Assembly (NCBI GenBank): GCA_963682055.1
Contig: OY821751.1
Location: 5,890,001-5,954,000 of the forward strand
From: Primula veris
Taxonomy: Eukaryota; Streptophyta; Magnoliopsida; Ericales; Primulaceae
DNA: 64,000 nucleotides
Direction: 5' to 3'
Both the position numbers and the translations under genes were made by a program. Under the pieces are notes generated by a model. That model was not told where the DNA came from, made no database searches, and was given only the letters and a program-made list of their open reading frames with translations. Shown here piece by piece: positions 10,289 through 30,888 of this stretch (the stretch's first letter is position 1; the number at the start of each line of letters is the position of its first letter).

Positions 10289-10324
<36 letters not shown>

Positions 10325-14440: not shown

Positions 14441-15008
14441 TGATAAAGCTATAACTTTGGTCGGTTGCGTTAGCTTTTTCAACAATGATATAATGGTAAA
14501 TCAATCGTGAATAAAGGACACTTTCTGATCTTTATTATTGCTCGGATTATTGTCCTTTTTCGGACTATTACATTTGCTCGGATTAGTATTTCGGTTTTAC
14601 AATTGTGCTCGATATGACTATTTAATCTCTCGTCTTGATCTTTCTCCCCTTTTATTCGGTGCTCGGCTGTCTTTTCTCGGTTTATTCCTCGAAGTGATAT
14701 GCTTTGGTTAATTTCTCTCTTTTCTTAACTTCTCTCTATATTTTTTGGATAGATTTTCTGGTCCTTTTCTAGGAGGGGTAGTTGGCTATTTATAGGCAAC
14801 TGCGCCTTCTAGGATATTGACAAATGTCTTCATCCTAGGGATTTTTCAGACATGGGTCCCCATTTGATTGGACTTGGGCTTTTGGTAGTAACACCTCAAT
14901 TTCTATAAAAAGTATGAGATGACCCATTTAAGTGTTGGATACCCATTTATAAAGTGGGTTGATTATTACCCGAATAAAATATTCGGGTCTAATTTTTATG
15001 TTCTATCA
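14441..15008 (-). repeat. 3' LTR of the Tat element
   Basis: 568 bp, TGATAAAG to TTCTATCA, with short inverted termini (TGATA/TATCA). It matches 30337-30888. It carries an extra 16-base stretch near 14500 that the other LTR lacks. On the minus strand a TATAAATAG box lies at about 14785. Confidence 0.95.
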
Positions 15009-15026
15009 AGTGCTCCCTGACTTCCT
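15009..15026 (-). promoter_or_regulatory. Candidate polypurine tract
   Basis: On the minus strand GAGGAAGTCAGGGAGCA directly precedes the 3' LTR (with two further bases), the position where plus-strand DNA priming occurs. It is purine-rich but interrupted, so the call is moderate. Confidence 0.45.
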
Positions 15027-15191
15027 CGGCGTGGTTTCCATGTCGGGGGAGTCATGTTTGGTTTGTCGATAACGTTACTTCGGTCTTGTCCTTCCCAATG
15101 CTTTATCGAGAAACGCAATAGACTTATGACGGTTCCCAGGGGGGCACATTTAATGTTTCCTATCCTAATATCTTTCTTCGAGAAAAAATCC

Positions 15192-15197
15192 TATAAA
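15192..15197 (+). promoter_or_regulatory. TATA box of antisense gene A
   Basis: TATAAA followed by GGGG, 61 bases before the ATG at 15253. Gene B has an almost identical TATAAAAGGGG arrangement 57 bases before its ATG, which supports both. Confidence 0.6.
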
Positions 15198-15252
15198 GGG
15201 GTGTGCTCCCTCCATACTTAGACATTTTACTTACTAATTTGCTCGTGACATA

Positions 15253-15573
15253 ATGGCTTCTTCAGGTTCTACTGGTGAGAGCTCCTTTAATTATATTTCA
15301 TATTTAGAAACGGAAATCAAGAAATCTCGTACCGCGAATAAGAAACTCGTGGCCAAGGTTTCAGACTACAAGAAAAGGTTGTCTAACATGGATTCTGATC
15401 ATCATGTGACGATGGCCGATCGGGATTGGGCCTATGAGCATATAAAGAAGCTCGAGGCTAATCTGGCCAAGCAGAAGGCAACAAAAAGGGCCTATAAGCT
15501 TGCCTTAAAGGAGTTGCATGCTCGGTCTAAACCGAGTTCGGATGATGATGAAGAAAGCTCTTCCTCGAAATAA
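15253..15573 (+). CDS. Antisense gene A: 106-residue coiled-coil protein
   Basis: Uninterrupted from ATG (15253) to TAA. It runs opposite to gag-pol within the 3' region of the Tat element. Residues about 15-90 are rich in Glu, Lys, Leu and Ala with heptad spacing, predicting a coiled coil. The tail is acidic and serine-rich (SSDDDEESSSS). Its segment KRAYKLALKELHARSK is matched in gene B by KRAYKLALKEVYARSK, so A and B are paralogues. A TATA box lies upstream and an AATAAA (15653-15658) about 80 bases downstream, so it looks like an independent transcription unit. I recognise no characterised family and assign no function. Confidence 0.6.
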   Translation: MASSGSTGESSFNYISYLETEIKKSRTANKKLVAKVSDYKKRLSNMDSDHHVTMADRDWAYEHIKKLEANLAKQKATKRAYKLALKELHARSKPSSDDDEESSSSK

Positions 15574-15819
15574 TTAGTCTTTTGTAATTTCTGTCGTAAT
15601 TTCTCTTGAATGGGGAGTCTTCTCCTCAGTTGTAATCGAAGTTTTTGAATTTAATAAAATATTTCCCTTTCCTTGTTCTTGTCTGTTTATCTTCTTGATG
15701 TCTTTTTGGATGACTTTAATTGGATTTGGAACTGTGGTTAATTCGCCGTAAATGCTCTTGGGAAGTTCAAGAGGTTGTATTTATTCGAGATGACCTTTGA
15801 TCTACTCCTTGTTTCTTCT

Positions 15820-15827
15820 TATAAAAG
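15820..15827 (+). promoter_or_regulatory. TATA box of antisense gene B
   Basis: TATAAAAG followed by GGG, 57 bases before the ATG at 15877. Confidence 0.6.
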
Positions 15828-15876
15828 GGGACTGTCCCAGTATTCTTTATGCAGTTCACTCTTTATTAAAGAACAA

Positions 15877-16199
15877 ATGGCTTCTTCTCTTGAAAACTAT
15901 GGTGACAACCTTTCTGAATACGTTGCCCGTCTGGAAGAGGAAGTTCAGAAGGTGCGTTATCTCGAGAAGAGGGTTGCCCGGCTGTCGGTGGAAGCTCGTC
16001 GGGCCGATTGGATGCCCTAGAGAAGGAGCACCAGAGGTCTTTGCTCGACAGTATTCGTGCTCGTGCCCGGATCAAAGAGCTCGAGGCCTCCAGAGATAGG
16101 CAGCTTGCTTCCAAGAGGGCTTACAAATTGGCCCTTAAGGAAGTGTATGCTCGGTCGAAAAGGAAGCCTAATGACGAAGCGGGCCCTTCTATGAAATGA
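15877..16199 (+). pseudogene. Antisense gene B: coiled-coil paralogue of A, frameshifted
   Basis: It begins MASSLENYGDNLSEYVARLE and reaches a stop at 16018-16020. From about 16005 the next frame continues without stop to 16199 and ends with KRAYKLALKEVYARSKRK, the segment shared with gene A. A single-base indel near 16005 therefore broke this copy; intact it would be about 107 residues, like A. It is Glu/Arg/Leu-rich throughout, predicting a coiled coil. AATAAA occurs at about 16260. Gene A starts MASS as well, strengthening the paralogy. Confidence 0.6.
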
Positions 16200-16748
16200 T
16201 TTTATTGTTTTCATTGTATTTTCTCTTTGTGCTTCTTCCGTAACGAAGTATCAACCAATCAATAAAGATTTCTTTTTCTTGTTTATATCTGAATTACTTT
16301 CCCAATGCAATTTATTTTGACTGCGCACGCTTGTGGCCTCATTAATGCTTTTCTTGGGCCTTGCGTTTGATCTTATCCATTGGACCTTCTTACTCTTTAT
16401 ATCTAGGGACCAATAGGATTTCTTGAGCCTTGTGCATAAAAAATCTTATTCACCAGAGTTTTCTTGAGCTTTGTGCAAAAGATCTGGGATATTTATTTGA
16501 ACCGCTGCCCTTCCCAAAAATGACGCGTGTTACGATGCCATTATTACTTACCCTCTTTAAATATTGGTAAGAATCCAAGCATTTTGCGAACAAGAGTGGC
16601 TTTTAATTACTCACGCTTTTTTAGAACCTTTTGAGAATCCAAACGTTTTTTTTTTTCTTGAACAGGCACATCTTTTAATTGCCGTCGCTTCTTAGTACCC
16701 ATTGGCGAACGGTTGCGACTCTCAATACCAGCCCTCATCTAATTGATC

Positions 16749-16756
16749 TATAAATA
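16749..16756 (+). promoter_or_regulatory. TATA box of antisense gene C
   Basis: TATAAATA, 92 bases before the preferred ATG at 16841. An in-frame ATG at 16769 is only 20 bases from the box, inside the region before any expected transcription start, so the later ATG is chosen. Confidence 0.5.
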
Positions 16757-16840
16757 ACTGCTTACAGCATGGTTACATCCACAATCCTCATCATATTATT
16801 TTCCCCCATATATAGACCCTCATCTTATAATTTCCCTAAG

Positions 16841-17134
16841 ATGTCTGGTCCTTTCACCCAATCAGCATTAGCTTTGCAAGTGGAGGCCTTTGAAGCCTCC
16901 TATAACCATGTACAAAGGCTGTTGAGGGATGCCGAGGAGGAATTGAAGGTGATGCGTTATCACCATACCGAGATGGTTCGGGAATTAACTTGGCTAAGAT
17001 CCGAACTGGCTTACTGCCGACGTGCTCGTCAGGCTCTAGTCGAAGAGAATGAGATGCTAAGGGGGAACCCGACACTGAGGGACAGGGATGTCTCTGCCGG
17101 GCCCTCTCATCGATACCGATCGACTTCCCCCTAA
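16841..17134 (+). CDS. Antisense gene C: 97-residue coiled-coil protein
   Basis: It begins MSGPFTQSALALQVEAFEAS and ends in a basic, serine/proline-rich tail (GPSHRYRSTSP). The middle (about residues 12-75) has Leu/Val heptads with many Glu and Arg, predicting a coiled coil. It shares the MSG start and general build with gene D. The frame is open further upstream to 16769, but the TATA position argues for 16841. It is followed by a long pyrimidine-rich stretch and then a cluster of TGTAAT motifs that could serve as its 3' processing region. Function unknown. Confidence 0.55.
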   Translation: MSGPFTQSALALQVEAFEASYNHVQRLLRDAEEELKVMRYHHTEMVRELTWLRSELAYCRRARQALVEENEMLRGNPTLRDRDVSAGPSHRYRSTSP

Positions 17135-17640
17135 CCTTCCCCCTTCTTTTTTTCCTTTCTCTCTGCTTTTCCCCATCTTTTCCCATCTCTTTCTTTTTCT
17201 TCTTTTTATTTCTCAGTTTCCATCATTTCTTCCTCTTCCTCTCTTGTGTTTTTTTTATACTCTGTTTTCTCGTACTTTTTATTCTTTTCTTTTTCCCTTT
17301 CTTTTTTGTTTCATTGACTTCCTTTTTAGTTGTCTGTCTCCTTCATTTCTTTATCTTCTTCTCATCTGTTTTTCTTCTGTGCCTCCTCTTTCTTTTTCTT
17401 CATCTTCTCTCCCATCACTCTTTATCTTTTTTTTTTCTTTTTTTTTTGTGCACCACTACGATGTAACAATCAGCCCTGTGATCCAAAGGGTTTTGTGTTA
17501 CATTTAGGGTTGGTCATTTTTCTTTTTGACTCTTCTTTCTTATCACTTCTTCTTTTCTTGCACTCTTCTTTTCCTCTTCTTGCTTTTCCTTTCTCTTTCT
17601 TCTTACTTTTTCTTTTTGGCGTCTCCTGCTCACTTGGTCA
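17135..17640 (+). repeat. Pyrimidine-rich tract of about 500 bp
   Basis: Almost entirely C and T on the plus strand (TTTCTTTTTCTTC-type), so nearly pure purine in the element's own RNA sense. The reading frames in it are low-complexity Phe/Leu/Ser artefacts. It separates antisense genes C and D. Confidence 0.85.
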
Positions 17641-17689
17641 GCTGATATAGTTGATCCTTTGCCTGATCTTCTGTACTAGCTCTTCTCGG

Positions 17690-17825
17690 ATGTAATAGAT
17701 ATTTTCAGATGTAATAGGTTTTCTTTTCGGATGTAATAGGTTTTTGTCTCGGATGTAATAGACCTTGATGTAACAGACCTCGATGTAATATTGTCTTTTG
17801 ATGTAATGAACAATGATGTATTCCA
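17690..17825 (+). repeat. Cluster of GATGTAATA motifs
   Basis: GATGTAAT or close variants (GATGTAAC, GATGTATT) occur about eight times within 135 bases, often preceded by TCG or TCA, and end beside AATGAA. TGTAA is a known plant far-upstream polyadenylation motif, so this may be a 3'-end signal for antisense gene C; that role is inference. Confidence 0.7.
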
Positions 17826-18066
17826 TCTTCATTAATGAAAAGTATTTTTGCCCTTTTATTTTTGCATTTATTTTTATATTGTACCTGTGGTTTATTGTTT
17901 GTCTGGAATCTAGATCTTTGAATATCTCGTCTTTATTTCTTCTGCACTGTAGTCTCAGATGTCAGTAGATGTCCCCATCACTGTCAAACATATGTGCATG
18001 CTCCCTAGTAGGTCAGGAAATGTGCAATTTCCCAAGCAAGGTCATAAAATATCATACTCTCCGTTC

Positions 18067-18074
18067 TATAAGTA
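18067..18074 (+). promoter_or_regulatory. TATA-like box of antisense gene D
   Basis: TATAAGTA, 103 bases before the ATG at 18170. Weaker than the boxes of A, B and E. Confidence 0.4.
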
Positions 18075-18169
18075 CTTCTCTTTTCTTTGGTAGTTTATCA
18101 TCTCTTTTTTCTTTTTGCTTCTCTCTTCCTCAGCCCTTTATTTTCTTCCGTACTAAACAATTTCCCAGA

Positions 18170-18649
18170 ATGTCTGGACATGTGGTGAGATATCATGCTC
18201 AGATGAAGGGCTTGGACACTGAGGTATCTCGGGTCCGCCGTCGGATGGCAAGGCTTGAGAAAGAGTATGGCGTTTTGGCCTTGAGCTTGTTCGGCTCTTA
18301 TCCCGAAGAGACGGTGAAGTGGACCGAGATCTCGGCACTGAGTCGCCAGCTCGATCACTTGTTGCTACAGAGAAACCATATGGCCAACTCCTGGTATGAT
18401 GCCGAGGAAATTTGGGACCATTCTCAAGATGAGTTTGACAACTCTCCTCAAGGCCTAGCTAGCATAATGGTAAAGAATGCTCGGCTCGTGGAGCGCGTCA
18501 GGGTTCTTACTACGGAAAACAACAGGCTCTCCTCGGAAAATGACGATTTGGTCGCCATGAACGATTCCTACCAAGCTCGGTTGAATTGTTCTGCTCGTTT
18601 TGCTTTCTCTCGGTCTGGCAGTTCGGTTTTTCCACCCATTGATCCTTAG
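18170..18649 (+). CDS. Antisense gene D: 159-residue coiled-coil protein
   Basis: It begins MSGHVVRYHAQMKGLDTEVS. The frame is open upstream to 17969, but that part has unlikely composition and lies before the TATA-like box, so the ATG at 18170 is preferred. Two coiled-coil stretches are likely: roughly residues 10-40 (VSRVRRRMARLEKEYG) and 100-140 (NARLVERVRVLTTENNRLSS). Between them is a Trp-containing region (NSWYDAEEIWDHSQDEFD). The C-terminus is Ser/Phe/Pro-rich. It shares its MSG start with gene C. Function unknown. Confidence 0.55.
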   Translation: MSGHVVRYHAQMKGLDTEVSRVRRRMARLEKEYGVLALSLFGSYPEETVKWTEISALSRQLDHLLLQRNHMANSWYDAEEIWDHSQDEFDNSPQGLASIMVKNARLVERVRVLTTENNRLSSENDDLVAMNDSYQARLNCSARFAFSRSGSSVFPPIDP

Positions 18650-18792
18650 ATTGGGCTGGTTTTCTTATGTATTTCCCCTTTTGCCATTTGTGTTTTATCT
18701 TCTGTATTTGATGAATCAGTTGTATCTTTTCGTATCTCGTGCCTGTCTTGTGAACCATTGTAACGCTTCGTACTTTGTGCCTTTTGATTCTC

Positions 18793-18798
18793 TATAAA
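18793..18798 (+). promoter_or_regulatory. TATA box of antisense gene E
   Basis: TATAAA, 77 bases before the ATG at 18870. The ATG at 18798 overlaps this box and is therefore not a credible start. Confidence 0.55.
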
Positions 18799-18869
18799 TG
18801 CTCCCTATTGCCTGTATCTCATTACCAATTTCTACCTCTCTCTTGTTTTATAATTTGCTTTTGCGTGAG

Positions 18870-19232
18870 ATGGCTCCCATCACTAGGTCTGCCTCCAAAA
18901 AGAAAGCCCTTATGGAAGAGGAGTCTACCTTTTTGCTACCTCGTCCCCCTGGCTTTGGGGAGGAGGATTTGACTCCTCTTCAACTAAAAGAAATTGAGAT
19001 GTCATGGCTGAAACATGATCTCATGTGTGCTCGGACTGAAGCGAGGAGGTTTAAACAATATTGGGACGAGGAGGGCACTGCTCGTTTCAAGGCCGAGCAA
19101 AAATGCGAGTCTTAGTCTTACGCCTTGAAACAGGTTGAGATGGCGATTTCTCGTTTGGTTAGGGAGAAGGAGCGTCTGGAGGAACTTTTGGCGAAGAGGG
19201 ATGTTGTTATGGGGGATAGTTCGAAAAAGTAG
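18870..19232 (+). pseudogene. Antisense gene E: coiled-coil protein with one nonsense codon
   Basis: It starts MAPITRSASKKKALMEEEST, with a Pro-rich stretch (LLPRPPGFGEEDLTPLQLKE) then a Glu/Arg/Leu-rich coiled-coil region. A TAG at 19113-19115 interrupts it after 81 residues. The same frame then continues for 38 more codons of the same coiled-coil character (VEMAISRLVREKERLEELL) to TAG at 19230-19232. AATAAA lies at 19288-19293. The intact form would be about 119-120 residues. No known family recognised. Confidence 0.55.
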
Positions 19233-19933
19233 GATGGGTGTATTTTCTTTTTCTGTTGTATTGTTTGTGTTTCCCCCTTTGTGGATGAATAAAACTTGTC
19301 TTGCACTTGATTCTGTCCTATTTTATTTCCTGTTTGCTTCTCTTTTATGTTTCTGAGCATACACCGAACAATATGCCCGGTTATCCCCCCGGAGAGCGTT
19401 GTTAGACTTGATGCTCCCTGCCATCAAGCTAGAAACGGTCTTCGTCCACCTTGTTCGGTGTTCCCTTTTGGTAAGGATTGGTTGAGAGTCGAGGAACTTT
19501 AATCGGGGGATATTCTCGGTGTGATAGTAGTGGTAGCGTATGTGGGAAGCTTTTCGTGGTAGGGTCCACTGGCCGTTTATTTAGGTCTAATGATGTGAAC
19601 TGCCTTGGGTAGTGGGATACGCGCTGACGTGGCGAAATCTGGAGCGTTTATATGTTAAAAAGAGCAGCGGTTGTTGACTTTTGTATGGTTGGAAAAAAGG
19701 TAAACCTCTGTTACACGAAAGGACGGTTATTATTTTATTCCTTTTGTGACTCCACTCCTTTCTATTGTGCCAAGTAACCCTGTTTATTTTTATCACAGAA
19801 TTTGCTGAAGAAAATATCTCTCTCTCTCTAAAGCATATTCTTCCCGCCAAAAAGGAAAAGAGTTTGGCCGCTTGATCTAGGGTTTCGTGGTTTTGTTGGA
19901 AGACTTGCTGCTGTTCGCGCTTGCTTGCTCATA

Positions 19934-21083
19934 ATGATTACTGTAAGTGATTTTTCGTTCTCCCCCCTTCCCTCTTTTTAGGAGTTGTATTTGATTTGTC
20001 GTTGTGGTCATAGGTGTGTCGTTGGTATATGGTTCAGATTGTCTATAGATGTCTGATGATTCTTATGTAATGTGTGTGTGTGTGGGGGGGGGGGGTGGTG
20101 GTTCTCGTTCTATTGATGTGGTTCTGGTTTGTGTATTTGGTTAGTATATTGATGGACTTTTGATGATCTTTGGATAGGAAATTTTGACCCAAAGTGTGGC
20201 CCAAGTTGGCACATTCGTGGAAAAGGATTTTAAAGAGCTCGCCGGAATACCCGACAACGTACATATTCGGCTTCCTATTTCTGACGAGGAGGTGCTGGGA
20301 TTTGTTCCTGCCGGCGAGGTAGCTGTGCGTTCGTCGGCATTCTTTACTGGGGGTCTTCGACTTCCTTTTACAAATTGGGTGGCCTCGTTCTTTGAGACCG
20401 TCCAAATTGCTCCGGCCCAACTGGCCCTAAATGGTTACCATACTCTGAATGGTATCCAAAGGCTATCGGAGTTGTCCGGAATACCGATTGAACTGAAGGA
20501 CGTCTTTGGAGTCTATAGTTTGAGCTTTGAGCGTCGCAGCTCGTATTTGAAGACTCTGCGTGCCTTTTGCCGGCTCGTTATCGGTTTGCCGGATACCAAC
20601 AAAGAGCGTAATCTTGGTATTGTAATTGCTTCCGGTGCATGGGGTTGTGCGGGACACCAGATTCCTGGACCGGCTACCAATGCTCCCATTATGCCAGACC
20701 TCGGCGCTCCCAATGTAGAGGCTCTGTTAGCTCTTTGGAAATGGTGGGGGCCTGGACCTACGCCGGATCCTGCGAGTCGTACTGCTCCCATGATGCTCGG
20801 TTACCCTATGGGGTCGGTGACCAAGGGGAATCCTGCACCCGAGATCCCCAAAGAGCCCGAGGAGGAATTCTTAAAGGTGGTCCGGGCTCGATGTGCTACT
20901 CGGCTTGGGAAAAAAGCCGTTCGTTCTAAGCGTCGTGCATCTGACCCTGTCGTTGAAACAACGAAGAGGGCTAGGGGAACCGATACATCGGTTACCGAGG
21001 AAGATGCTAACGTTGGCTCGGGCGAGGGGGTGTTTGCTGCTTCCCAAGGGGATACCGCCGAGGATGCCTCTGCGCCGGGCGAG
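19934..21083 (+). CDS. Antisense gene F, 5' part: 'putative gypsy type transposon' domain
   Basis: A tiny first exon (ATG ATT ACT, 19934-19942) with a GTAAGT donor splices in phase to an acceptor before 20178. The second exon is open to a GAG|GTATGT donor after 21083. The protein has about 300 residues here. Its first half (GVYSLSFERRSSYL, VASFFETVQIAPAQLALNGY) resembles the plant 'putative gypsy type transposon' (Transposase_28) domain, commonly found on the antisense strand of Tat elements. The second half is Pro-rich then basic (LGKKAVRSKRRASDP), a possible nuclear signal, and acidic at the end. The domain match is from memory of the family pattern. The downstream exon connection is not fully resolved. 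Confidence 0.6.
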
Positions 21084-21173
21084 GTATGTGTATATGTATT
21101 ATGATTTTCTTGTCTTTTGGTTGTTTGTCATTTTGTTCGCTAGTGCTTTGCTTTATTAGTCATCTTGTTTCAG

Positions 21174-21295
21174 CTACTGACTTCTCCATTGGTTACCCTC
21201 GCTCTATGTCGGCCCCGTCCACTCCTCGACCGGATGCTACTGTTGTTCCCCCACCAGTATCTCCTCAGGTGGAACCTTGACTATCTTTCTAGCAG

Positions 21296-21334
<39 letters not shown>

Positions 21335-22073
21335 TTTTGGTCTCTTGTGTATCTAGAAACAGATTCTTTTGGGGAAGTGATAATATAGGTGCTGTGGTTT
21401 CTTTCTGTTGGGCTTTCTTGGGTTAATTTCTTTTGATGGTCGTCATATTTTGAAGGATGTGAAAACAAAATATTGCCAGGTACCAAATAACCCCCTTGCC
21501 ATGGTGGTCTGGACCTCGCCTGGTCGTAGTGTAGGTGACGTAATGGAAGATTTGGAAAGATCTAACGCGTCCCTGACCGCGAAATTGACTTGTGCTTATC
21601 AGGAAATCGAGGGTCTGAATATTCATATTTCCAACTTGGCGATCCGGCTACGTGATTTGGGAGAGAAATTTAGTAAAAAGACCGCCCATTATACGACAAA
21701 TAAGGGTAAAGCAAAGGAACTTCTCGGTGCCCTACGACGTTCTCGTGATGAAGCCCGAGGTCGTGTGACGAGCTTGAGCTTGGTCCTTGGGGCCGTTTTT
21801 GAGGACGCGGATCTGCTGCTATCCTTTGCCAAAGCGTATTGGGCCCGAGCTCGCGCCTTAGAGGTGCTGGAGCATATAAAAGGAATGAGTGGTGTGTCCC
21901 GGGCAGAGCGCATGGTGGATGCGAAGGCCGGGGTAACTGAAACCACTGTTGCCTTGAACCGAATCGAGGCGGTCATTCGTGAGCGTTTGGGGACGCAAAT
22001 TAATTCATTGCGAGATATTCATTTTGCCGATGTAGTAGAGACTTCGGCGTCTGTTGAGGGGTTGTCGGATTAA
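21174..22073 (+). CDS. Antisense gene F, middle part: Pro-rich linker and coiled coil
   Basis: An acceptor at 21173 (TTGTTTCAG) opens a short exon whose most protein-like frame reads SAPSTPRPDATVVPPPVSPQ and could join, at CAG|GTGGAA, to an exon beginning after the acceptor CCAG at about 21480. That frame does not follow in phase from the exon ending at 21083, so the join is uncertain. The later exon is open to TAA at 22071-22073. It encodes about 195 residues (NPLAMVVWTSPGRSVGDVME onward) dominated by a coiled coil, then helices (FAKAYWARARALEVLEHIKG). AATAAA overlaps the stop. A TA microsatellite and T-run at 21299-21339 lie in the putative intron. Confidence 0.45.
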
Positions 22074-22372
22074 TAAAATAGCTTGTTTTGTCGTTTTCTT
22101 TGTAGCTTGTATAAAAAATTCTCTTTTTTTTTTTTTTTTTGTAGCTTCTTTCTTTTTTTTCTTTTTTCCCTCTCTTTTTTTTTTTTTTTTATATTCATCT
22201 CTTCTCGTTCTTCTCCCCCCCTCTTTTTTTATAGGCACATGCTACTATGTCGCACTAGGCTGGTTCTCCATGCCTAGTTAACCCGGGGTTAGGACCTACT
22301 GGTGCTGCCCGGGACGAGGTCTCATCTGGTGCGGCTAGTGAGGTGCCTGACAGGTGGCCCTACATTGTTTTG

Positions 22373-22885
22373 ATGAGCAAAAATGTCAAATTGACCGACC
22401 AATGTGCTCGACTGCGGACCAAGCTGAAAACCCAGGCGGCCTCTTTTCGAGAATACGTTCGCCGTGCCGAGCATGCTGTTGAGGTTCAGGAGCGTCGTTT
22501 GGATCGATATTGGCGTGCAAAGGACGAGTACTTCGGTAAATTAAAGTTGCTTGTGACCAAGGCCAACGTGTTGGTGAAGTATTTCCGTTTGTCCCGTGCC
22601 AGATACGATGCTTCCGCAGCTATGATCGAAGCTCGCCGTAACCTCTCTTTTGACGATGATCGCCGTAAAGCGGCCTCGGATGCTCACGAATTCGCCAAAG
22701 AAGCCGAGTTCAACGCGCGGCTTCAGACGCTGACTTGTGTTGGGGTTCATACGACCAATTTTGATGCCCTCATTTCTGAGGAGCGTTTTGATGGTGATGA
22801 GTCTGATGGGTACACAACGACGGATGACGAAGAGATTGAGCTCGGTCAATTACCGTCGTGCTCCTCCTGCAGTAGCTCTTCTTAA
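22373..22885 (+). CDS. Antisense ORF G: coiled-coil protein with acidic Ser-rich tail
   Basis: From the first ATG (22373) the frame is open for 170 residues to TAA at 22885. Upstream the frame stays open to about 22260, where an AG could be a splice acceptor, so it may instead be the last exon of gene F. Residues about 10-120 are Arg/Lys/Glu/Ala-rich with long helices (AEHAVEVQERRLDRYWRAKD). The end is acidic (DGYTTTDDEEIELG) and finishes in a run of Ser and Cys. Gene A has a similar acidic-serine tail. No TATA box is evident, and poly(T)-rich sequence (22110-22240) precedes it. Confidence 0.5.
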   Translation: MSKNVKLTDQCARLRTKLKTQAASFREYVRRAEHAVEVQERRLDRYWRAKDEYFGKLKLLVTKANVLVKYFRLSRARYDASAAMIEARRNLSFDDDRRKAASDAHEFAKEAEFNARLQTLTCVGVHTTNFDALISEERFDGDESDGYTTTDDEEIELGQLPSCSSCSSSS

Positions 22886-23179
22886 ATGAATTTCTTTAGT
22901 GTCGATGATCTTCTTGTTGCCTCCGTAATGCGGGCGAGGACTATTTATGTTATTTCTTTATTCCTGTTTTGTACCTTTCCATTGCCGTATTGCTATTTAA
23001 TTGATTGGATCGATTTTTCCTTGCTAAATCATTTGTTATTTCGTTATTCCTGTTTTGGAGATGCTTCTTGTTGATATTTTGTTGTTTAGATTGATTCTCC
23101 TTCATTGTTTTAGCCAATTTATATTGCATCGCCGCCGTAATGTGGACCTGAATAATTCCTTGCATTGTACCTGCATATA

Positions 23180-24236
23180 AATTTCATAGTATTCCTAGGC
23201 GTTCCTTCGGTAACACGCCATGTTGGGAATTTCATAGTATTCCTAGGCACTTCGGCCATGTTGGAAATTTCATAATATTCCTAGGCGTTCCTTCGGTAAC
23301 ACGCCATGTTGGGAATTTCATAGTATTCCTAGATGTTCCTTCGGTAACACGCCATTTACGGAATTTCATAGTATTCCTAGGCACTTCGGCCATGTTGGGA
23401 ATTTCATAATATTCCTAGGCGTTCCTTCGGTAACACGCCATGTTGGGAATTTCATAGTATTCCTAGACGTTCCTTCGGTAACACGCCATTTACGGAATTT
23501 CATAGTTTTCTTAGGCACTTCGGCCATGTTGGGAATTTCATAGTTTTCCTAGACGTTCCTTCGGTAACACGCCATTTACGGAATTTCATAGTATTCCTAG
23601 GCACTTCGGCCATGTTGGGAATTTCATAATATTCCTAGGCGTTCCTTCGGTAACACGCCATGTTGGGAATTTCATAGTATTCCTAGGCACTTCGGCCATG
23701 TTGGGAATCTCATAGTATTCCTAGACGTTCCTTCGGTAACACGCCATTTACGGAATTTCATAGTATTTCTAGGCACTTCGGCCATGTTGAGAATTCCATA
23801 GTATTCCTAGACGTTCCTTCGGTAACACGCCATTTACGGAATTTCATAGTATTTCTAGGCACTTCGGCCATGTTGAGAATTTCATAGTATTCCTAGACGT
23901 TCCTTCGGTAACATGCCATTTACGGAATTTCATAGTATTTCTAGGCACTTCGGCCATGTTGAGAATTTCATAGTATTCCTAGACGTTCCTTCGGTAACAC
24001 GCCATGTTGGGAATTTCATAGTATTCCTAGGCACTTCGGCCATGTTGGGAATTTCATAGTATTCCTAGACGTTCCTTCGGTAACACGCCATTTACGGAAT
24101 TTCATAGTATTTCTAGGCACTTCGGCCATGTTGAGAATTTCATAGTATCCCTAGACGTTCCTTCGGTAACACGCCATTTACGGAATTTCATAGTATTCCT
24201 AGGCACTTCGGCCATGTTGGGAATTTCATAGTATTA
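23180..24236 (+). repeat. Tandem array of an 86-bp dimer (38 + 48 bp)
   Basis: Two related monomers alternate. Both begin GGAATTTCATAGTATTCCTA. The short one (38 bp) continues GGCACTTCGGCCATGTTG, the long one (48 bp) GACGTTCCTTCGGTAACACG plus CCATTTAC. About a dozen dimers occur, with occasional swaps of the CCATTTAC/CCATGTTG ends. Each monomer start is an inverted repeat (GGAAT...ATTCC). The array lies between pol and the antisense genes, the region known in Tat elements to breed satellite-like repeats. Confidence 0.95.
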
Positions 24237-24338
24237 GTAGACAGCATAATAATATATTTTATTCATTCAAAAGAAGAAAGATAATGCCATTAAGCAAGAA
24301 GGGTAAGGTAGCACCTGTACTTGTATTCGGAGCATTGC

Positions 24339-27300
24339 CTATACGTAGTACTTTTTTAAGTTAGCCACATTCCAAGAATTCTTTTCCCCTCGGCTGTTGG
24401 CGAACAGGACGCTTTTGATTTTGTAAGAGACTGGACTTGTTTGCTTGACGATTTCGTATGGGCCTTCCCAGGTAGGGCTTAGTTTGCCATGTATTTCGTT
24501 GCGGGTATAGACCGTCACTCGTCGCAGCACCAGTTCTCCTACCATGAATTCTTTAGACCCTTTTACTCTCTTGTCATAGGTTTGCTTCACGCTTTGTTGG
24601 TACTTAGCTAGGGTAAGGGCCGCTATCTCTCGTTTCTCGTCTATCATGTCGAGCTCTTCTCTCATTCTTTGTTCATTATTTCCCTGCTCGACCAACGTCG
24701 TTCGGAGCGTGGGTAGCCCGATCTCTGTCGGTATGATGGCCTCAACACCGTATGCTAAGCTAAACGGGGTTTCCTTGGTGCCCGTCTTGGGTGTAGTTCG
24801 GCACGACCATAAAACGTTGAGTAGCCGCTCGGGCCACCTCCCCTTTGCCTGTTCAAGGGTGGTCTTGATGCCGTCTAATATTGTTCGGTTTGACACTTCG
24901 GCTTGCCCGTTCCCTTGTGGGTACGTCGGCGTCGAATAGAATTTTCGGATACCGAGTTCCTCGTACCACAGCTGTAAATTGGCATCTTTGAACTGGGTTC
25001 CGTTGTCGGCGACTATAGCGTACGGTATACCGAACCTAGTTATGATGTATTCCCAAATGAATTGTTTGACGTTGCTGGCTTTGATTTCTCGGAGGGGTTT
25101 AGCTTCGACCCATTTGGTGAAATAATCAGTCGCAACGATCAGATATTCCACATTCCCAGGTGCTCTTGGGAGTTTACCGACCAAATCAATTGCCCATTGA
25201 GCGAACGGCCATGGTGCTGATACCGGGGTCATCATAGATGAAGGGAGCCGTGGTATCTTGGCAAATCGTTGGCACTTGTCGCATCGTTGGACGTATGCAT
25301 CGGTGTCTCGCTTGATATAGGGCCACCAATACCCTTGGGTCACTGCCTTGTTTGCAAGGGATCGCCCTTTGATGTGTGCTCCGCAAGATCCTTCGTGGAT
25401 TTCCTCCAAGACCGGCAGTTGTAGCTCGGTCGGGACGCACAGTAGATGTGGTCCCCGGTAACTGGATTTGTATAGTTTATCGTCCTCGGATAGCCAGAAG
25501 CGAGGAGCTTTTCTTGTAATTTTCAGCGCTTTTATCTTGTCGACCGGAAGCGTTCCACTTCGCAGATAATGGGTCATGTCCTCCATCCATCCTAGTTCGT
25601 ACTGTATCGATGTCACCCGGTTTACCCTTTTTATTATGCTCGGGGTCGGCAGTAGTTCCACTGTGATCGACCGACTGTCAGTCAATGTTAATGTCGAGGC
25701 TAGGGTGGCCAATGCATCGGCATGTGCATTCTCGGTGCGATTGATTCTTACTAACTCGCACTGTTCGAAGGTTGCCATCAAGCTTTGGACTTTCTCTTGG
25801 TAGAGGATCATTCTATCATCTTTCGCTTGGTACTCGCCGATGGCTTGATTGACGATGAGCATGGAGTCTGAGCTTGCAATTAAGTGGGAGCATCCGAGGG
25901 ACCGGGCAATAAGCATGCCGTTTATCATGGCCTCGTATTCTGCCTCATTGTTGGTAGCTCGGAAGCCCAGTTTTATGCTTTTTTCGATGATTGCTCCCTC
26001 TCTAGACTTTAGGACGATCCTTGCTCCTGATCCGTCCTTGGTGGCTGATCCGTCGACATGTATCTGCCAGTGTGATTGTGGAGAGAGTGCCAAAGGCTCG
26101 TCATAGCCTTCGGTGAATTCTGCGACGAAATCGGCCAGGACTTGTCCCTTTATGGCATGGCGGGGTGCGAACTCGATATGAAATTGGGATAGCTCGACCC
26201 CCCAGGCGGCAACTCGGCCGCTAATGTCCGTCCGTCGAAGTGACTCTTTAATATGAAATTTTGTGTATACCCGGACCTGATGAACTATGAAATAGTGTGG
26301 CAACTTCCTGGTTGCGACGACCAATGCCAGGCACAGCTTTTCCAAGGGTAGATAACGTGTTTCGGCTTCGACCAGAGTCTTGCTGATGAAGTAGATCGGA
26401 AATTGTTCGCGACCTTCTTCTCTTAGGATGACCGCGCTCACAGCTGTAGCGGAAACTGCTAGGTAGCATGCCAGAATGTCTCCTCTGTTCGGCCTTACTA
26501 GCAGTGGCAATGTCCTCAAGTACTCTTTGAGATTGTTGAATGAAGCTTCACATTCCGGGTCCCAGACGAATTTTCTATCCTTCTTGAGTGATTCGAAAAA
26601 TGGCCGTCCCTTATCTGCGGATCGGCTAATGAACCTGCTCAGCGCGGCCATCATTCCCGTGAGCTCTTGTACCTGTTTCTTATTCTTGGGCGCTGCTAGG
26701 TTTCGTAGAGCCGTTATTTGATCGGGATTAGCCTCTATTCCTCGTCGGCTAACCATATGCCCCAAGAATTTCCCTTTGTTGATGCCAAATGCACACTTGC
26801 TCGCATTGAGTTTCAGTTTGTGCTCGCCCAGCATTCTGAAAACGTCCCTGATATCTTGAAGGTGGGATGTGGCTCTTTCGCTCTTGACGACCATGTCGTC
26901 TATGTATACCTCCATCGTCTTCCCTATATGATCTCGACATACGCTTGTTATCATCCTTTGGTATGTTGCTCCCGCATTGCGTAGGCCGAACGGCATTACT
27001 GTATAGCAATAATTTCCCAAAGGTGATATAAACGAAGTCTTTTCTTGATCTTCGCGGGCGAGGGGAATTTGATGGTATCCTGAATATGCGTCAAGGAAGG
27101 TCATCCGTTCTGCCCCCGCAGTTGCGTCCACCAGTTGATCAATCCTCGGAAGAGGAAAGTGGTCCCTCGGGCAGGCTTTGTTGAGGTTTGTGAAGTCTAT
27201 ACATACTCTCTCCTTCCCGTTCTTCTTAGGGACGACAACCGGGTTGGACAACCATTTTGGATAGTAAACCTCCCTTATGGCTCCAGCCTCCAATAGCTTT

Positions 27301-27647
27301 TGTACTTCAGCGATTATAGCTGCTCTGTGCTGTACAGACACTTTCCTGCTCCTTTGTGCTATCGGCTTGTACTCGACGTTCACACTTAGGTGGTGGCATG
27401 CTGTATTGGGGTCTATGCCCGGCATGTCTTTAGGACTCCAGGCGAATTTATCAATGTTGCTGAAAAGGAACGCTTCTAACTCCTCGGATTCCTGTTTTGG
27501 AAGGTTATCGCCGAGGAGGAAATAGTGCTCCTCGTCCATATCCGGGATATACACCTTCCTAAGTGTCTCTCCTACTTGTTCTTTGACCACCCTCTCGGTT
27601 TTGACTATGTGGTTGATCAGCTTCTTTGTGCTAGTGGGTTGTTCCAC
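24339..27647 (-). CDS. pol: Tat-element Pol: RT, RNase H, archaeal-type RNase H, integrase
   Basis: The open frame covers 1102 codons and lacks its own ATG, being the continuation of the gag-pro frame. Domains in order: reverse transcriptase (about residues 110-320; KNGKERVCIDF, FLDAYSGYHQIPL, YIDDM near 248); Ty3 RNase H (about 340-480); a second, archaeal-type RNase H (about 530-655; HVDGSATKDGSGA, NNEAEYEAMINGM, ENAHADALATLAS); integrase zinc finger (about 745-800, H-H-C-C in HEGSCGAH and CDKCQRF); and a catalytic core with Asp in WAIDLVG (about 822), Asp in ADNGTQF (about 884) and Glu in GQAEVSN (about 919). A tail about 100 residues long follows with ELVLRRV and WEGPYEIV motifs. This part is intact. 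It copies element RNA into DNA and integrates it. Confidence 0.95.
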   Translation of the reverse strand: MEQPTSTKKLINHIVKTERVVKEQVGETLRKVYIPDMDEEHYFLLGDNLPKQESEELEAFLFSNIDKFAWSPKDMPGIDPNTACHHLSVNVEYKPIAQRSRKVSVQHRAAIIAEVQKLLEAGAIREVYYPKWLSNPVVVPKKNGKERVCIDFTNLNKACPRDHFPLPRIDQLVDATAGAERMTFLDAYSGYHQIPLAREDQEKTSFISPLGNYCYTVMPFGLRNAGATYQRMITSVCRDHIGKTMEVYIDDMVVKSERATSHLQDIRDVFRMLGEHKLKLNASKCAFGINKGKFLGHMVSRRGIEANPDQITALRNLAAPKNKKQVQELTGMMAALSRFISRSADKGRPFFESLKKDRKFVWDPECEASFNNLKEYLRTLPLLVRPNRGDILACYLAVSATAVSAVILREEGREQFPIYFISKTLVEAETRYLPLEKLCLALVVATRKLPHYFIVHQVRVYTKFHIKESLRRTDISGRVAAWGVELSQFHIEFAPRHAIKGQVLADFVAEFTEGYDEPLALSPQSHWQIHVDGSATKDGSGARIVLKSREGAIIEKSIKLGFRATNNEAEYEAMINGMLIARSLGCSHLIASSDSMLIVNQAIGEYQAKDDRMILYQEKVQSLMATFEQCELVRINRTENAHADALATLASTLTLTDSRSITVELLPTPSIIKRVNRVTSIQYELGWMEDMTHYLRSGTLPVDKIKALKITRKAPRFWLSEDDKLYKSSYRGPHLLCVPTELQLPVLEEIHEGSCGAHIKGRSLANKAVTQGYWWPYIKRDTDAYVQRCDKCQRFAKIPRLPSSMMTPVSAPWPFAQWAIDLVGKLPRAPGNVEYLIVATDYFTKWVEAKPLREIKASNVKQFIWEYIITRFGIPYAIVADNGTQFKDANLQLWYEELGIRKFYSTPTYPQGNGQAEVSNRTILDGIKTTLEQAKGRWPERLLNVLWSCRTTPKTGTKETPFSLAYGVEAIIPTEIGLPTLRTTLVEQGNNEQRMREELDMIDEKREIAALTLAKYQQSVKQTYDKRVKGSKEFMVGELVLRRVTVYTRNEIHGKLSPTWEGPYEIVKQTSPVSYKIKSVLFANSRGEKNSWNVANLKKYYV

Positions 27648-27953
27648 AATGCTTCGTTGTTTTTGGAGAGTCGCGGTGATGTCTTCGCAGCGTCTTGAAT
27701 CTTCTTGACATCCTCTGGCTGTCTAGATCTCTCCCCTATCATTTGGGTATTTGACCTTTTGGTGATAGGTCGATGGTATGGCCTTCATGGCATGTAACCA
27801 AGGTCAGCCCAATATTGCGTTGTGGCCGGAGTGGTCGTTAACCACTAAGAACTCTACGGGAACCGACACGGACCCGGTTGTGACACTGAGGACGATCTTT
27901 CCCAATGGTTTAGTCGTTTCGGAGATGAATCCGATCAGCGTGACGTCCGCAGG
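27648..27953 (-). pseudogene. C-terminal protease segment with nonsense codons
   Basis: Between the gag-pro ORF and pol ORF the reading frame is the same (30335 and 27647 differ by a multiple of three). It encodes protease-like sequence (SVSVPVEFLVVNDHSGHNAI) broken by in-frame stops: TAG at 27954-27956, a TGA just after NAILG, and TAG at 27723-27725. Gag, protease and Pol were therefore originally one continuous frame, now interrupted, so this copy cannot make the full polyprotein. Confidence 0.8.
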
Positions 27954-30335
27954 CTATAGATCTTGCAGCTTGAGTTCCATTTTGTCGAAGAGCTCCCTAT
28001 ACATGATATCACAAGAGGCTCCTTGGTCGACAAGTACCCTGCTGACCGTGTCTAGGCCGATTTGAACTCGGAGGTTAATGGCGTCTCCGTGGGGGTAAAT
28101 CACCCCTTCTTCGTCAAGATCTAAGAAAGAAATTGGAGGATGTCGTCGTTGTGTGCACTGTCGTTTAGAGGTCGACGCCTGTGATGCCTTGGCTACTTGG
28201 CCAAAGTGGGCCAGCTGCCGTTGTCGCGACCGTTCCCCACCGGGGCCCTCGGGTCGTGACATATGAACGACGTTGATCGTTTTACCTTGCCGGTTGTCGG
28301 ATCCCTCGACGGCCAATTGTTTGCCTTTATTCCCAGCTCCTTTGATGAACTTGGCTAGGTATCCTGCATCGCCCCACTGGTTCATTCTCCATCGCAGGTT
28401 ACGGCAATGCTCAGTGAGATGGCCGTGATCCTCGTGATATGCGCAGAAGAGCTTGGAATCTCTCTGATTGGGGGGAGAGATGATCGGTTGTGGTCGGGAA
28501 TACCAACTTTCCCTACATATATCCTTGAGGATATCTTCAGCAGATAGGTTGAAAGTGTATCGCAGCTCGACCGGTCCGAAGGTGTTTCGGTGTTCCCTCT
28601 CTTGGGGCCGAACCTGTTGAAATGGCTTGGGTGGCATCGGGTAGGTGAGCTGGAGCGGTTTATGTTCGTTGGTCGGTGTTGGGTATGCGATCTGGAGCGG
28701 TTTGGGCTCTAGTGCTCGTGGTCGCTCTACCCTGCTATGGACCTCGGGCTCTTTGCCCTTTCTGGTCCGTTGGAATGCTTCTTCCTGGTTATTCCTAACT
28801 CTTTTGCGACCCACCTGTGCCTCGCGGACCGACTCTCTTCTCGGTAGAGTTCGGTTGAGGAAACGCATTTCGTCGTTTTTATCGGTGAGGTGGGTACAAT
28901 AGGCTAGCAGGGAATCAGTGGTCGGGAAGTTTTTGCCTATGAACTTCCTTCTCGCCCAATAGCCATTAGGGATGGAATTGATAAAGTTTTGGATGGCTAT
29001 ATTATTGGCATATCGTGGAATCTGGTTTGCTACGTCGATAAAACGTATGCAGTAATCGTTGAGCCTTTCATTTGGCATCATCGCCATTTTAAGAAGGGTT
29101 TCGATACTAACCTTCTTTTTCCGATGAGCAGCGTATCGGGTGGAGTATGCTCTTAGCAATTCTGCCCAGTTTCTAATGGAGCCCCGTGGTAAGTTATGAT
29201 ACCATGACGAAGCCTCTTGACCCAAGCTGTTTTTGAAAAATTTGCACATCAGTGCATGGTCATCACTCCACAGTTCCATCTTCGTCTTGTAGTGCCTCAG
29301 ATGGTCGATAGGGCAACTCTTCCCATCATAGAGCCTGAATTCGGGGATGACGAATCCCATAGGATTGCGGTACCGCGTGATCTGTTCGGTACATGGGGTT
29401 TCTTGGCATACGTTCCAAGCCTGTTGGAACGCGTCATCCGTGACTTGGTAGGGGGGAGGGTATCCTCCCTGATGTGGTGATGGGCCATATCCTTCCCCGA
29501 TCCTGTATTCGGGATATCTACCGTCCTTCGTGTTTGTGTGGACACGTTCCATATGAGTGTTCGGATGGACGATAGTTATTGGGACATTGCCCCCTTGGTG
29601 GGGGACTCTTGTATCGGGTCGCCGACCCGCTGCCTCCAGGGCGGCCCTGTAGGCAGAATCTTCCACTTCATGGCGTGGGTCTTTGTCGGGTTGGATAACT
29701 GGCAATACGATGCCGGCCGCTGTCATGGCCGTCATGCATGCCGCCAGCTGAGCTTGTAGCTGGGCGTAGTTCCTTTCATCGGCTAATGGAACAACATGTT
29801 GTACCTCCACCGTGGGTGGTGTAATCATCCTCGGAGAATTAGTCGGTAGTCGGGGCGACTGTCCGAGTACATGATCCTCGGGCATGCCAAACTGATGGGC
29901 TTCGTCCGTTTGTAAACGAGCACCGGAGTTGACCGAGGCTGTAGGCAAAGGGACTCTTGAGCTCGGCCCTGCTTGGGACCCGGTTAAGCGTCTTCGTGCA
30001 CGCCTTAATACGGGCACGTCTTGTTCGTCCTCCGAGGACGAAGGGTGTTCGTCGACAATCCCTTCGATGAAATGTCGGGGTGGTTCGACCGGTTGTTCTT
30101 GGTTGACGTAGGAGGTTGTTGGTTGGTTTCCGGATTGGATAGCTTCATATCTGTCGCGGATAGCGAGTAGATCGTCGAGGTCTTGTTGGCTAATTTGCGT
30201 GTTTTGGTTATTGGTTTCTACTATCTCGGGATGGGTTTTCTCTACATTGGTAACCATTGTCGCTCGTCTGGCAGAGTATTGGTATTCGAATTCTAAACTA
30301 GTTGGGAACTTGATGGTTCCCACAGACGGCGCCAT
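27954..30335 (-). CDS. gag: Tat-element Gag and N-terminal protease
   Basis: 793 codons from an ATG two bases inside the 5' LTR boundary; the next in-frame ATG (residue 27) may be the real start because the first overlaps the primer site. The N-terminal 300 residues are disordered, Glu/Gln/Pro-rich. A retrotransposon Gag capsid domain spans about residues 310-500 (FRLYDGKSCPIDHLRHYKTK, WYHNLPRGSIRNWAELLRAY). Around residue 630 is the CCHC-like FCAYHEDHGHLTEHC motif typical of Tat elements. Near residue 775 is the aspartic-protease site VDQGASCDIMY, where Gln replaces the usual Thr or Ser of the D-T/S-G triad. The frame then meets TAG at 27954-27956. Confidence 0.92.
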   Translation of the reverse strand: MAPSVGTIKFPTSLEFEYQYSARRATMVTNVEKTHPEIVETNNQNTQISQQDLDDLLAIRDRYEAIQSGNQPTTSYVNQEQPVEPPRHFIEGIVDEHPSSSEDEQDVPVLRRARRRLTGSQAGPSSRVPLPTASVNSGARLQTDEAHQFGMPEDHVLGQSPRLPTNSPRMITPPTVEVQHVVPLADERNYAQLQAQLAACMTAMTAAGIVLPVIQPDKDPRHEVEDSAYRAALEAAGRRPDTRVPHQGGNVPITIVHPNTHMERVHTNTKDGRYPEYRIGEGYGPSPHQGGYPPPYQVTDDAFQQAWNVCQETPCTEQITRYRNPMGFVIPEFRLYDGKSCPIDHLRHYKTKMELWSDDHALMCKFFKNSLGQEASSWYHNLPRGSIRNWAELLRAYSTRYAAHRKKKVSIETLLKMAMMPNERLNDYCIRFIDVANQIPRYANNIAIQNFINSIPNGYWARRKFIGKNFPTTDSLLAYCTHLTDKNDEMRFLNRTLPRRESVREAQVGRKRVRNNQEEAFQRTRKGKEPEVHSRVERPRALEPKPLQIAYPTPTNEHKPLQLTYPMPPKPFQQVRPQEREHRNTFGPVELRYTFNLSAEDILKDICRESWYSRPQPIISPPNQRDSKLFCAYHEDHGHLTEHCRNLRWRMNQWGDAGYLAKFIKGAGNKGKQLAVEGSDNRQGKTINVVHMSRPEGPGGERSRQRQLAHFGQVAKASQASTSKRQCTQRRHPPISFLDLDEEGVIYPHGDAINLRVQIGLDTVSRVLVDQGASCDIMYRELFDKMELKLQDL
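30318..30334 (-). promoter_or_regulatory. Primer-binding site
   Basis: TGGCGCCGTCTGTGGGA on the minus strand begins two bases inside the 5' LTR. It is complementary to a tRNA ending in GGCGCCA and is the form seen in Tat-lineage elements. The upstream ATG of the gag frame overlaps its first two bases. Confidence 0.85.
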
Positions 30336-30336
30336 T

Positions 30337-30888
30337 TGATAAAGTCATAACTTTGGTCGGTTGCGTTAGGCTTTTCAACAATGATATAATGGTAAATCAA
30401 CCGTGTGATCTTTATTATTGCTCGGATTATTGTCCTTGTTCGGAATATTACATTTGCTCGGATTAGTATTTCGGTTTTGCAATTGTGCTCGATATGACTA
30501 TTTAATCTCTCGTCTTGATCTTTCTCCCCTTTTATTCGGTGCTCGGCTGTCTTTTCTCGGTTTATTCCTCGAAGTGATATGCTTTGGTTAATTTCTCTCT
30601 TTTCTTAACTTCTCTCTATATTTTTTGGATAGATTTTCTGTTCATTTTCTAGGAGGGGTAGTTGGCTATTTATAGGCAACTGCGCCTTCTAGGATATTGA
30701 CAAATGTCTTCATCCCAGGGATTTTTCAGACATGGGTCCCCATTTGATTGGGCTTGGGCTTTTGGTAGTAACACCTCAATTCCTATAAAAAGTATGAGAT
30801 GACCCATTTAAGTGTTGGATACCCATTTATAAAGTGGGTTGATTATTACCCGAATAAAATATTCGGGTCTAATTTTTATGTTCTATCA
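30337..30888 (-). repeat. 5' LTR of the Tat element
   Basis: 552 bp, same ends as the left LTR. A minus-strand TATAAATAG box lies near 30675. It ends 299 bases downstream of the stop codon of the PPIL1-type gene, so the element landed in or just beyond that gene's 3' UTR, in the same orientation. Confidence 0.95.

What the first reader, a model, noticed from the sequence alone, without database searches (positions are those of the whole stretch)
15009..22885. A cluster of antisense coiled-coil genes inside a Tat retrotransposon
The 3' region of the element carries, opposite to gag-pol, at least five small proteins (A-E) and a larger spliced gene (F/G). Four of the small genes (A, B, C, E) have a TATA box 57-92 bases before the ATG, and D has a weaker one; A, B and E have an AATAAA soon after the stop. 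Single antisense ORFs are known from Tat elements such as Grande and Retand. A row of separately promoted, partly paralogous coiled-coil genes is not something I know to be described. It suggests the element hosts a small gene family of its own, perhaps structural or regulatory partners assembling through coiled coils.
Basis: partly seen in the sequence, partly recalled or inferred. Interest (0 to 1): 0.88.

Follow-up and report, generated by a model that had tools for sequence, protein, structure and literature searches.

The report
Conserved antisense gene cluster in retrotransposon
A plant jumping gene carries, on the strand opposite its own replication genes, a row of at least five small extra protein genes that selection has kept intact, so such elements may be richer in genes than surveys limited to long reading frames could show.

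Summary
A 16.4-kb Retand-like Ty3/gypsy element (14441-30888, gag-pol on the minus strand) carries five small plus-strand genes, A-E, and a larger spliced gene, F/G, between pol and the 3' LTR. This copy is decayed: B is frame-shifted, E has a TAG, gag-pol has stops, and F/G lacks about 1.1 kb.

Relatives settle the coding question. In the window and 20 further copies, A-E are open in 15-20 of 20-21 each. Pooled over A-E, variants shared by two or more copies are mostly synonymous (N:S 37:72, omega 0.22); singletons are not (74:42, 0.75; p = 1e-5). Against a diverged subfamily dN/dS is mostly 0.11-0.31 in all five genes, while spacers fall to 54-79% identity. TATA boxes recur at fixed distances before A, B, C and E.

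Antisense ORFs with a TRP28 domain are known from Retand elements, and F is a weak match. The two surveys I read counted ORFs of at least 200 or 250 codons; A-E have 97-159. Only A and B are paralogues. Expression and function are untested; I infer helical, probably nuclear, accessory proteins acting on the element's own copies.

The parts
14441..15008 (-). 3' LTR of the element (element lies on the minus strand)
   Evidence: Match to 30337-30888, 13 differences in 552 aligned bases.
15253..15573 (+). Gene A, 106 aa, helical; paralogue of B
   Evidence: Open in 20 of 21 copies, omega of shared variants 0.17; dN/dS 0.15-0.27 against 5 diverged copies; model one helix 6-92.
15877..16199 (+). Gene B, about 112 aa in open copies; frame-shifted in this copy
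   Evidence: Open in 20 of 21 copies, the window being the exception; omega of shared variants 0.15; relative P0006.
16841..17134 (+). Gene C, 97 aa
   Evidence: Open in 20 of 21 copies, omega of shared variants 0.21, p 0.058; dN/dS 0.12-0.27 in 7 diverged copies, dS saturated in 3.
18170..18649 (+). Gene D, 159 aa, helical
   Evidence: Open in 15 of 20 copies, omega of shared variants 0.24, p 0.13; dN/dS 0.14-0.19 in 10 of 10 diverged copies; relatives P0001, P0002.
18870..19232 (+). Gene E, 120 aa in open copies; TAG at codon 82 in this copy
   Evidence: Open in 18 of 21 copies; no contrast within the subfamily (p 0.75); dN/dS 0.11-0.23 in 9 diverged copies and 0.41 in one.
19934..19942 (+). 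Predicted first coding exon of F/G (M-I-T, then GTAAGT donor)
   Evidence: Exact 15-mer in 18 of 21 copies.
20178..21083 (+). F exon 2, weak Transposase_28 (TRP28) match
   Evidence: PF04195, 15.1 bits, cut-off 26.2; omega of shared variants 0.15, p 2.8e-6.
21197..21205 (.). Junction of a deletion of about 1.1 kb in this copy (loses exon 3 and most of the long coiled-coil exon)
   Evidence: 20 of 20 other copies carry the extra stretch.
21480..22073 (+). G exon, 197 codons then stop
   Evidence: Open in 19 of 20 copies, acceptor CAG in 20 of 20.
22247..22885 (+). H: last exon of F/G or a gene of its own; early TAG in this copy
   Evidence: Open in 11 of 16 copies (two of the 16 are cut by the end of the fetched stretch, one of them counted as not open).
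23180..24242 (.). Tandem array, 86-bp unit, 12 copies, beside pol
24339..27647 (-). pol (RT, RNase H, second RNase H, integrase)
   Evidence: Pfam.
27954..30335 (-). gag and start of protease; three stops lie between it and pol
   Evidence: Pfam Retrotrans_gag.
30337..30888 (-). 5' LTR
   Evidence: flanking 5-mers ATACC and ATAGC agree at 4 of 5 positions.

Best explanation
This is a Retand-like Tat retrotransposon whose pol-3' LTR region is an antisense accessory-gene module: at least five small protein genes (A-E) plus one spliced gene (F/G: TRP28-like N-terminus, then coiled coil). SHOWN: the frames are real protein genes held by purifying selection while the element multiplied; their order, TATA spacing and the F/G splice borders are kept. 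INFERRED: each small gene is its own RNA polymerase II transcription unit on the strand opposite gag-pol, so the proteins can be made without the LTR promoter and without splicing the genomic RNA. The products are small helical proteins that most likely pair with one another and with the F/G protein in the nucleus and act in trans on element DNA or RNA (transcriptional control, escape from silencing, or handling of the integration complex). Likelihood of the parts: selected protein genes 0.97; own promoters 0.75; nuclear trans-acting regulatory or assembly role 0.4.
For: Open frames and omega per gene; pooled A-E shared N:S 37:72 against singletons 74:42, p 9.6e-6, with frame controls; C-D-E in order in 10 of 10 diverged copies with dN/dS of D 0.14-0.19 at dS 0.70-0.94; A and B likewise in 5 of those copies; TATA within 120 nt A 21/21, B 20/21, C 31/31, E 31/31; splice borders; helical models of A and D; TRP28 as the only Pfam hit of F. 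The review PMC7264820 (parts 1-2 of 3 read) reports an own upstream promoter and a nuclear product for the antisense gene of Grande.
Against: No transcript or protein data. Four of 20 copies share a TAG at codon 67 of D and are within 0.3-0.7% of one another outside D, so D-defective copies may multiply; copies without the TAG (L016, L018) are about as close. Taken alone within the subfamily, C (p 0.058), D 0.13, E 0.75, G 0.21 and H 0.18 do not reach 0.05. The coiled-coil exon shows no contrast (shared 22:21, singletons 17:18; 14 copies) and exon 3 only weak constraint (51:42). D lacks a canonical TATA in 21 of 21 copies of this subfamily; C and D lack a nearby AATAAA in 31 of 31. The heptad signal is borderline for A and E. 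One control frame also shows low omega (0.37).
Confidence: 0.62

Rival explanations
1. Antisense RNA is the functional product: plus-strand transcripts pair with the genomic RNA and tune its silencing, and the proteins matter little.
For: The review PMC7264820 discusses dsRNA-mediated regulation by such antisense transcripts. The TATA boxes fit any plus-strand transcript.
Against: Constraint follows codons: omega 0.22 in the coding frame against 0.98-2.70 in four other frames, and dN/dS mostly 0.11-0.31 at dS up to 0.9 and beyond. RNA function alone would not spare amino acids.
Confidence: 0.12
2. A-E work for something other than regulation in the nucleus, for instance as structural or packaging partners of the virus-like particle, through interaction with Gag in the cytoplasm.
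For: Small helical proteins would suit this role, and no nuclear signal or DNA-binding domain was found for A-E in Pfam.
Against: The only located relative in print, the Grande product, is nuclear (PMC7264820). No relation of A-E to Gag by hhalign.
Confidence: 0.2
3. A-E are captured host genes carried as passengers.
For: Introns in F/G and own promoters resemble host genes; no relatives in families searched.
Against: Kept in order in both subfamilies with low dN/dS, which a passenger would not show. Single-copy host relatives could not be looked for among the many element copies.
Confidence: 0.04
4. Chance frames in low-complexity, pyrimidine-rich DNA.
For: Spacers hold long pyrimidine runs that also give open frames.
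Confidence: 0.02

Closest known systems
Retand lineage with TRP28 antisense ORFs (Vicient 2025, PMC11963269; parts 1-3 of 5 read)
   Same: Antisense ORFs between pol and 3' LTR, TRP28 product in 97% of clusters, tandem repeats often near pol, Smc-type (coiled-coil) matches in some antisense ORFs.
   Different: That survey examined ORFs of 600 bp or more (shorter ones only if TRP28) and reports 104 antisense ORFs; A-E are all shorter than 600 bp. Here pol-3' LTR is 9.3 kb and the internal region 15.3 kb against 2.9-6.6 kb and 7.4-12.9 kb there. The TRP28 match of F is below Pfam's cut-off.
Grande gene23, Retand ORF4, PvRetro13 ORF2 (as described in PMC7264820, parts 1-2 of 3 read; original papers not read)
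   Same: Antisense, downstream of pol; own promoter and nuclear product (gene23); TRP28 (Retand ORF4); SMC domain (PvRetro13 ORF2).
   Different: The text read names one antisense protein for each; here at least six genes in a row.
eORF-3'R of plant Tat elements (Neumann 2019, PMC6317226; passages and sections 9 and 13 read)
   Same: Extra reverse ORFs in the 3' part of the element.
   Different: At least 250 codons were required there, and the authors leave open whether such ORFs have a function; here shorter ones show purifying selection.
Antisense genes of retroviruses such as HBZ of HTLV-1 (from PMC11963269)
   Same: Antisense gene on the proviral strand, regulatory protein.
   Different: Analogy only; no sequence relation tested.

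Membership tests
Tat clade, Retand lineage | Second RNase H (aRH) between RNase H and integrase (shared by Ogre and Retand, PMC6317226) | tested here: met
   RVT_3 at 531-649, between RT_RNaseH 397-489 and Integrase_H2C2 738-795; that RVT_3 is the aRH is recalled.
Tat clade, Retand lineage | Antisense ORFs between pol and 3' LTR | tested here: met
Tat clade, Retand lineage | TRP28 (PF04195) in an antisense ORF | tested here: inconclusive
   Only Pfam hit of F, profile 3-58 of 69, but 15.1 and 16.2 bits against a cut-off of 26.2.
Tat clade, Retand lineage | Place in a reverse transcriptase tree | not tested
   No reference set of plant RT sequences was at hand.
Tat clade, Retand lineage | Size range in PMC11963269 (internal 7.4-12.9 kb, pol-3' LTR 2.9-6.6 kb) | tested here: not met
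   15.3 and 9.3 kb: longer. A range found in one survey, not a defining character; I therefore write 'Retand-like'.
Ogre lineage | Plant mobile domain eORF; gag-protease and pol ORFs separated by about 274 bp (PMC6317226) | tested here: not met
   No such domain in the proteins scanned; the 306-nt interval reads as one frame with three stops, which does not exclude a spliced interval.
Coiled-coil proteins (A-E) | Long helices with heptad periodicity | tested here: inconclusive
   Helical models for A and D only; whole-length 3.5-residue periodicity p: A .050, B .005, C .043, D .017, E .055; best 28-residue stretch p.180.004.044.332.128.

The most novel reading that the evidence does not exclude
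Plant Retand-type elements carry a retrovirus-like set of accessory genes: at least six independently promoted antisense genes, five of them small orphan proteins under purifying selection and exchangeable between subfamilies by recombination. This would make them among the most gene-rich LTR retrotransposons, overlooked because surveys cut off at 200-250 codons.
Probability: 0.55. Interest if true: 0.82.

Novelty: new variant of a known kind. Interest (0 to 1): 0.72.

Why it matters
Whether the extra ORFs of plant retrotransposons have any function is a question left open in print (PMC6317226, section 13). Here five small ones and the TRP28-like one show codon-level purifying selection in an abundant family, so the element itself gains from them. 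The small genes fall below the length cut-offs of the two surveys I read, so similar modules may be common, unannotated, or mistaken for host genes. Copies are plentiful (1,698 first-look candidates for D, 150 scored), so expression and interaction tests are easy to set up.

Tried and rejected
Rejected: chance ORFs (codon tests). Rejected: that A-E form one family; in an all-against-all hhalign of ten profiles plus gag only A-B passed 30% probability. Rejected: the window's F/G as an intact gene.

Led nowhere: viral-contig scans with D, F and pol (no relatives); NCBIfam and solved structures for D, chance-level matches only; Rfam and tRNA scans (none); own-genome tallies for A and F (not completed). 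Other plants could not be searched with these tools; five database relatives (P0001, P0002, P0003, P0005, P0006) bear no species name.

Selection of data: the 20 copies are the 20 best matches after the window to 15009-16500, a stretch with A and B, so the openness of A and B is biased upward; 18 further full-length matches and one partial one (1-1236) were not fetched, and that list is itself capped (40 scored of 1,369 candidates). The 150 scored D copies (2 of 150 with a stop; 23 of 150; both counted by eye) are the best of 1,698 and 1,439 candidates. Dropped before counts for under 80% coverage: L012 for D and G; L010, L012, L017, L020, L028 for H; W for F3; W, L010, L012, L022, L024, L025, L026 for F4. 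The site test used biallelic sites only and an assumed transition weight.

Against my reading: C, D, E, G and H do not reach p 0.05 alone within the subfamily; F4 shows no contrast; one antisense control frame has omega 0.37 for shared variants (p 0.019), which I take to be overlap of silent positions, an inference; AATAAA follows B in only 1 of 4 diverged copies; diverged copies carry some stops (D of L030, E of L030 and L032).
Full report
WHAT IS THERE. The window holds one LTR element, 14441-30888 (16,448 bp), with gag-pol on the minus strand. The LTRs differ by K2P 0.024 (13 differences in 552 aligned bases), 0.9-1.7 million years at two rates recalled for plants.

THIS COPY IS DECAYED. 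A, C and D are open. B changes frame, E has a TAG at codon 82, H a stop at codon 8 of the stretch tested. The gag-pol frame has three stops between the two large ORFs. In 20 of 20 other copies about 1.1 kb lies between the points that match window 21205 and 21197; it holds exon 3 and most of a long charged coiled-coil exon. Database relatives of E and B are open over 120 and 112 residues.

TEST 1, THE SAME SUBFAMILY. One search listed 41 matches to 15009-16500: 39 over the full query (the window itself included), one over 1-1236 and one short piece. I fetched the 20 best after the window. Open frames: A 20/21, B 20/21, C 20/21, D 15/20, E 18/21, F exon 2 17/21, G 19/20, H 11/16. Mutations after insertion should be private to a copy and near neutral; variants shared by two or more copies mostly arose while the lineage was transposing. 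Omega of singletons, then of shared variants: A 1.52, 0.17; B 1.04, 0.15; C 0.83, 0.21; D 0.54, 0.24; E 0.50, 0.40; F 0.72, 0.15; G 0.67, 0.33; H 0.85, 0.40. Fisher p: A 0.0064, B 0.01, C 0.058, D 0.13, E 0.75, F 2.8e-6, G 0.21, H 0.18. Pooled A-E: singletons N:S 74:42, shared 37:72, p 9.6e-6; in the five other frames omega of shared variants is 0.98, 2.44, 1.17, 2.70 and 0.37, the last being an antisense frame. Sites are treated as independent.

TEST 2, A DIVERGED SUBFAMILY. A 79% relative of D (P0002) led to a second subfamily in the same genome (150 scored of 1,439 candidates, 86-94% identical to P0002). In the 10 loci fetched, C, D and E follow in the same order in 10 of 10. Against copy L009: D 0.14-0.19 at dS 0.70-0.94 (10 of 10, one with a stop); E 0.11-0.23 in 9 (two with stops) and 0.41 in one with dS 0.09; C 0.12-0.27 in 7, dS saturated in 3. 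Upstream stretches of five of these ten copies gave A 0.15-0.27 (5 of 5, no stops) and B 0.16-0.27 in four; the fifth B is cut off in its stretch (0.44 over 64 codons) and gives 0.31 over its full length in locus L032. A against B: 0.22 at a near-saturated dS of 2.4. DNA between the genes diverges more: L031 against L009 is 54% upstream of C, 58-79% in the C-D spacer blocks, 80-86% in C and 77-83% in D. At host-like rates a dS of 0.8 means tens of millions of years, far older than the window's insertion (inference).

PROMOTER AND END SIGNALS. TATA[AT]A within 120 nt before the ATG: A 21/21 (-60 or -61), B 20/21 (mostly -56), C 31/31 (mostly -92, -86 in four diverged copies), E 31/31 (-73 to -106); D 0/21 in this subfamily, 10/10 in the other (-86 to -108). 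The motif occurs in 64 of 421 windows of 120 nt on the plus strand here and 69 of 421 on the minus. In the five diverged upstream stretches one lies at -56 to -60 before 10 of 10 A and B genes. AATAAA within 150 nt after the stop: A 21/21, B 21/21, E 30/31, C 0/31, D 0/31; in diverged copies A 5/5, B 1 of 4. Copies are related, so these are not independent counts, and no transcript was seen.

F/G. The predicted start ATGATTACT|GTAAGT is exact in 18 of 21 copies. Exon 2 gives Transposase_28 (TRP28, PF04195) as its only Pfam match, E 0.027 here and 0.013 in L013, below the curated cut-off. Borders: exon 2 donor GT 21/21; exon 3 AG 19/20, GT 20/20; coiled-coil exon AG and GT 14/14; G acceptor CAG 20/20. 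Selection on exon 3 is weak (shared 51:42) and the coiled-coil exon shows no contrast (22:21 against 17:18).

PROTEINS. A is modelled as one helix, residues 6-92 (mean pLDDT 85.9), D as three helices (73.1); only three sequences stood behind each model. Periodicity at 3.5 residues, whole length: p 0.050 A, 0.005 B, 0.043 C, 0.017 D, 0.055 E. Helical is well supported for A and D; coiled coil is likely for B and plausible for the rest. Only A and B are homologous.

EXCHANGE AND DISPENSABILITY. Copy L033 is 87-99% like L009 (one block 74%) around C and in the first part of the C-D spacer, and 90-97% from the end of D on; in the four blocks between, with most of D and its upstream part, it is 64-80% like L009 and 94-99% like the other subfamily's L036. 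The D segment has been exchanged. Four of 20 copies share a TAG at codon 67 of D and are within 0.3-0.7% of one another outside D; copies without it (L016, L018) are about as close, so the history is not clear-cut, but D-defective copies seem to have multiplied, perhaps helped in trans.

MECHANISM. The layout frees these proteins from the LTR promoter. PMC7264820 reports for Grande an own upstream promoter and a nuclear antisense product; PMC11963269 predicts DNA binding for TRP28. The best reading is a set of helper proteins acting in trans, probably in the nucleus, assembling with one another and with F/G. Coding status and selection are shown; promoters are supported; the rest is inference.

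KNOWN AND NEW. Antisense ORFs in Retand elements are known. Seven searches of open-access papers listed no paper whose title or abstract start describes a row of small selected antisense genes; of the listed papers I read three, in part. Steinbauerova 2011, Kejnovsky 2006 and Gomez-Orte 2013 were not read. Cut-offs of the two surveys: 600 bp (PMC11963269) and 250 codons (PMC6317226), above all of A-E. Lineage: the second RNase H lies between RNase H and integrase, as in Ogre and Retand; no reverse transcriptase tree was made.

Noticed in passing
37893-40991: Near-perfect inverted duplication (arms 1,526 nt, 99% complementary, 47 nt apart), each arm with a 315-aa ORF that looks like an OTU-type protease (recalled resemblance, not searched), perhaps from a Mutator-like element.
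   Followed up: partly
61590-63073: Dense nest of inverted repeats; the outermost listed pair has 93-nt arms, 100% complementary, like a foldback element.
   Followed up: no
8045-10298 and 35008-37392: Two stretches of diverged repeats on either side of the element, the first spaced about 320-340 bp.
   Followed up: no
L011, L014, L017, L020 (gene D, codon 67): Four closely related copies share a TAG in D, hinting that D-defective copies multiplied with help in trans.
   Followed up: partly
L033: Mosaic copy: most of D and its upstream part come from the other subfamily, while C, E and most flanks match the window's subfamily.
   Followed up: partly
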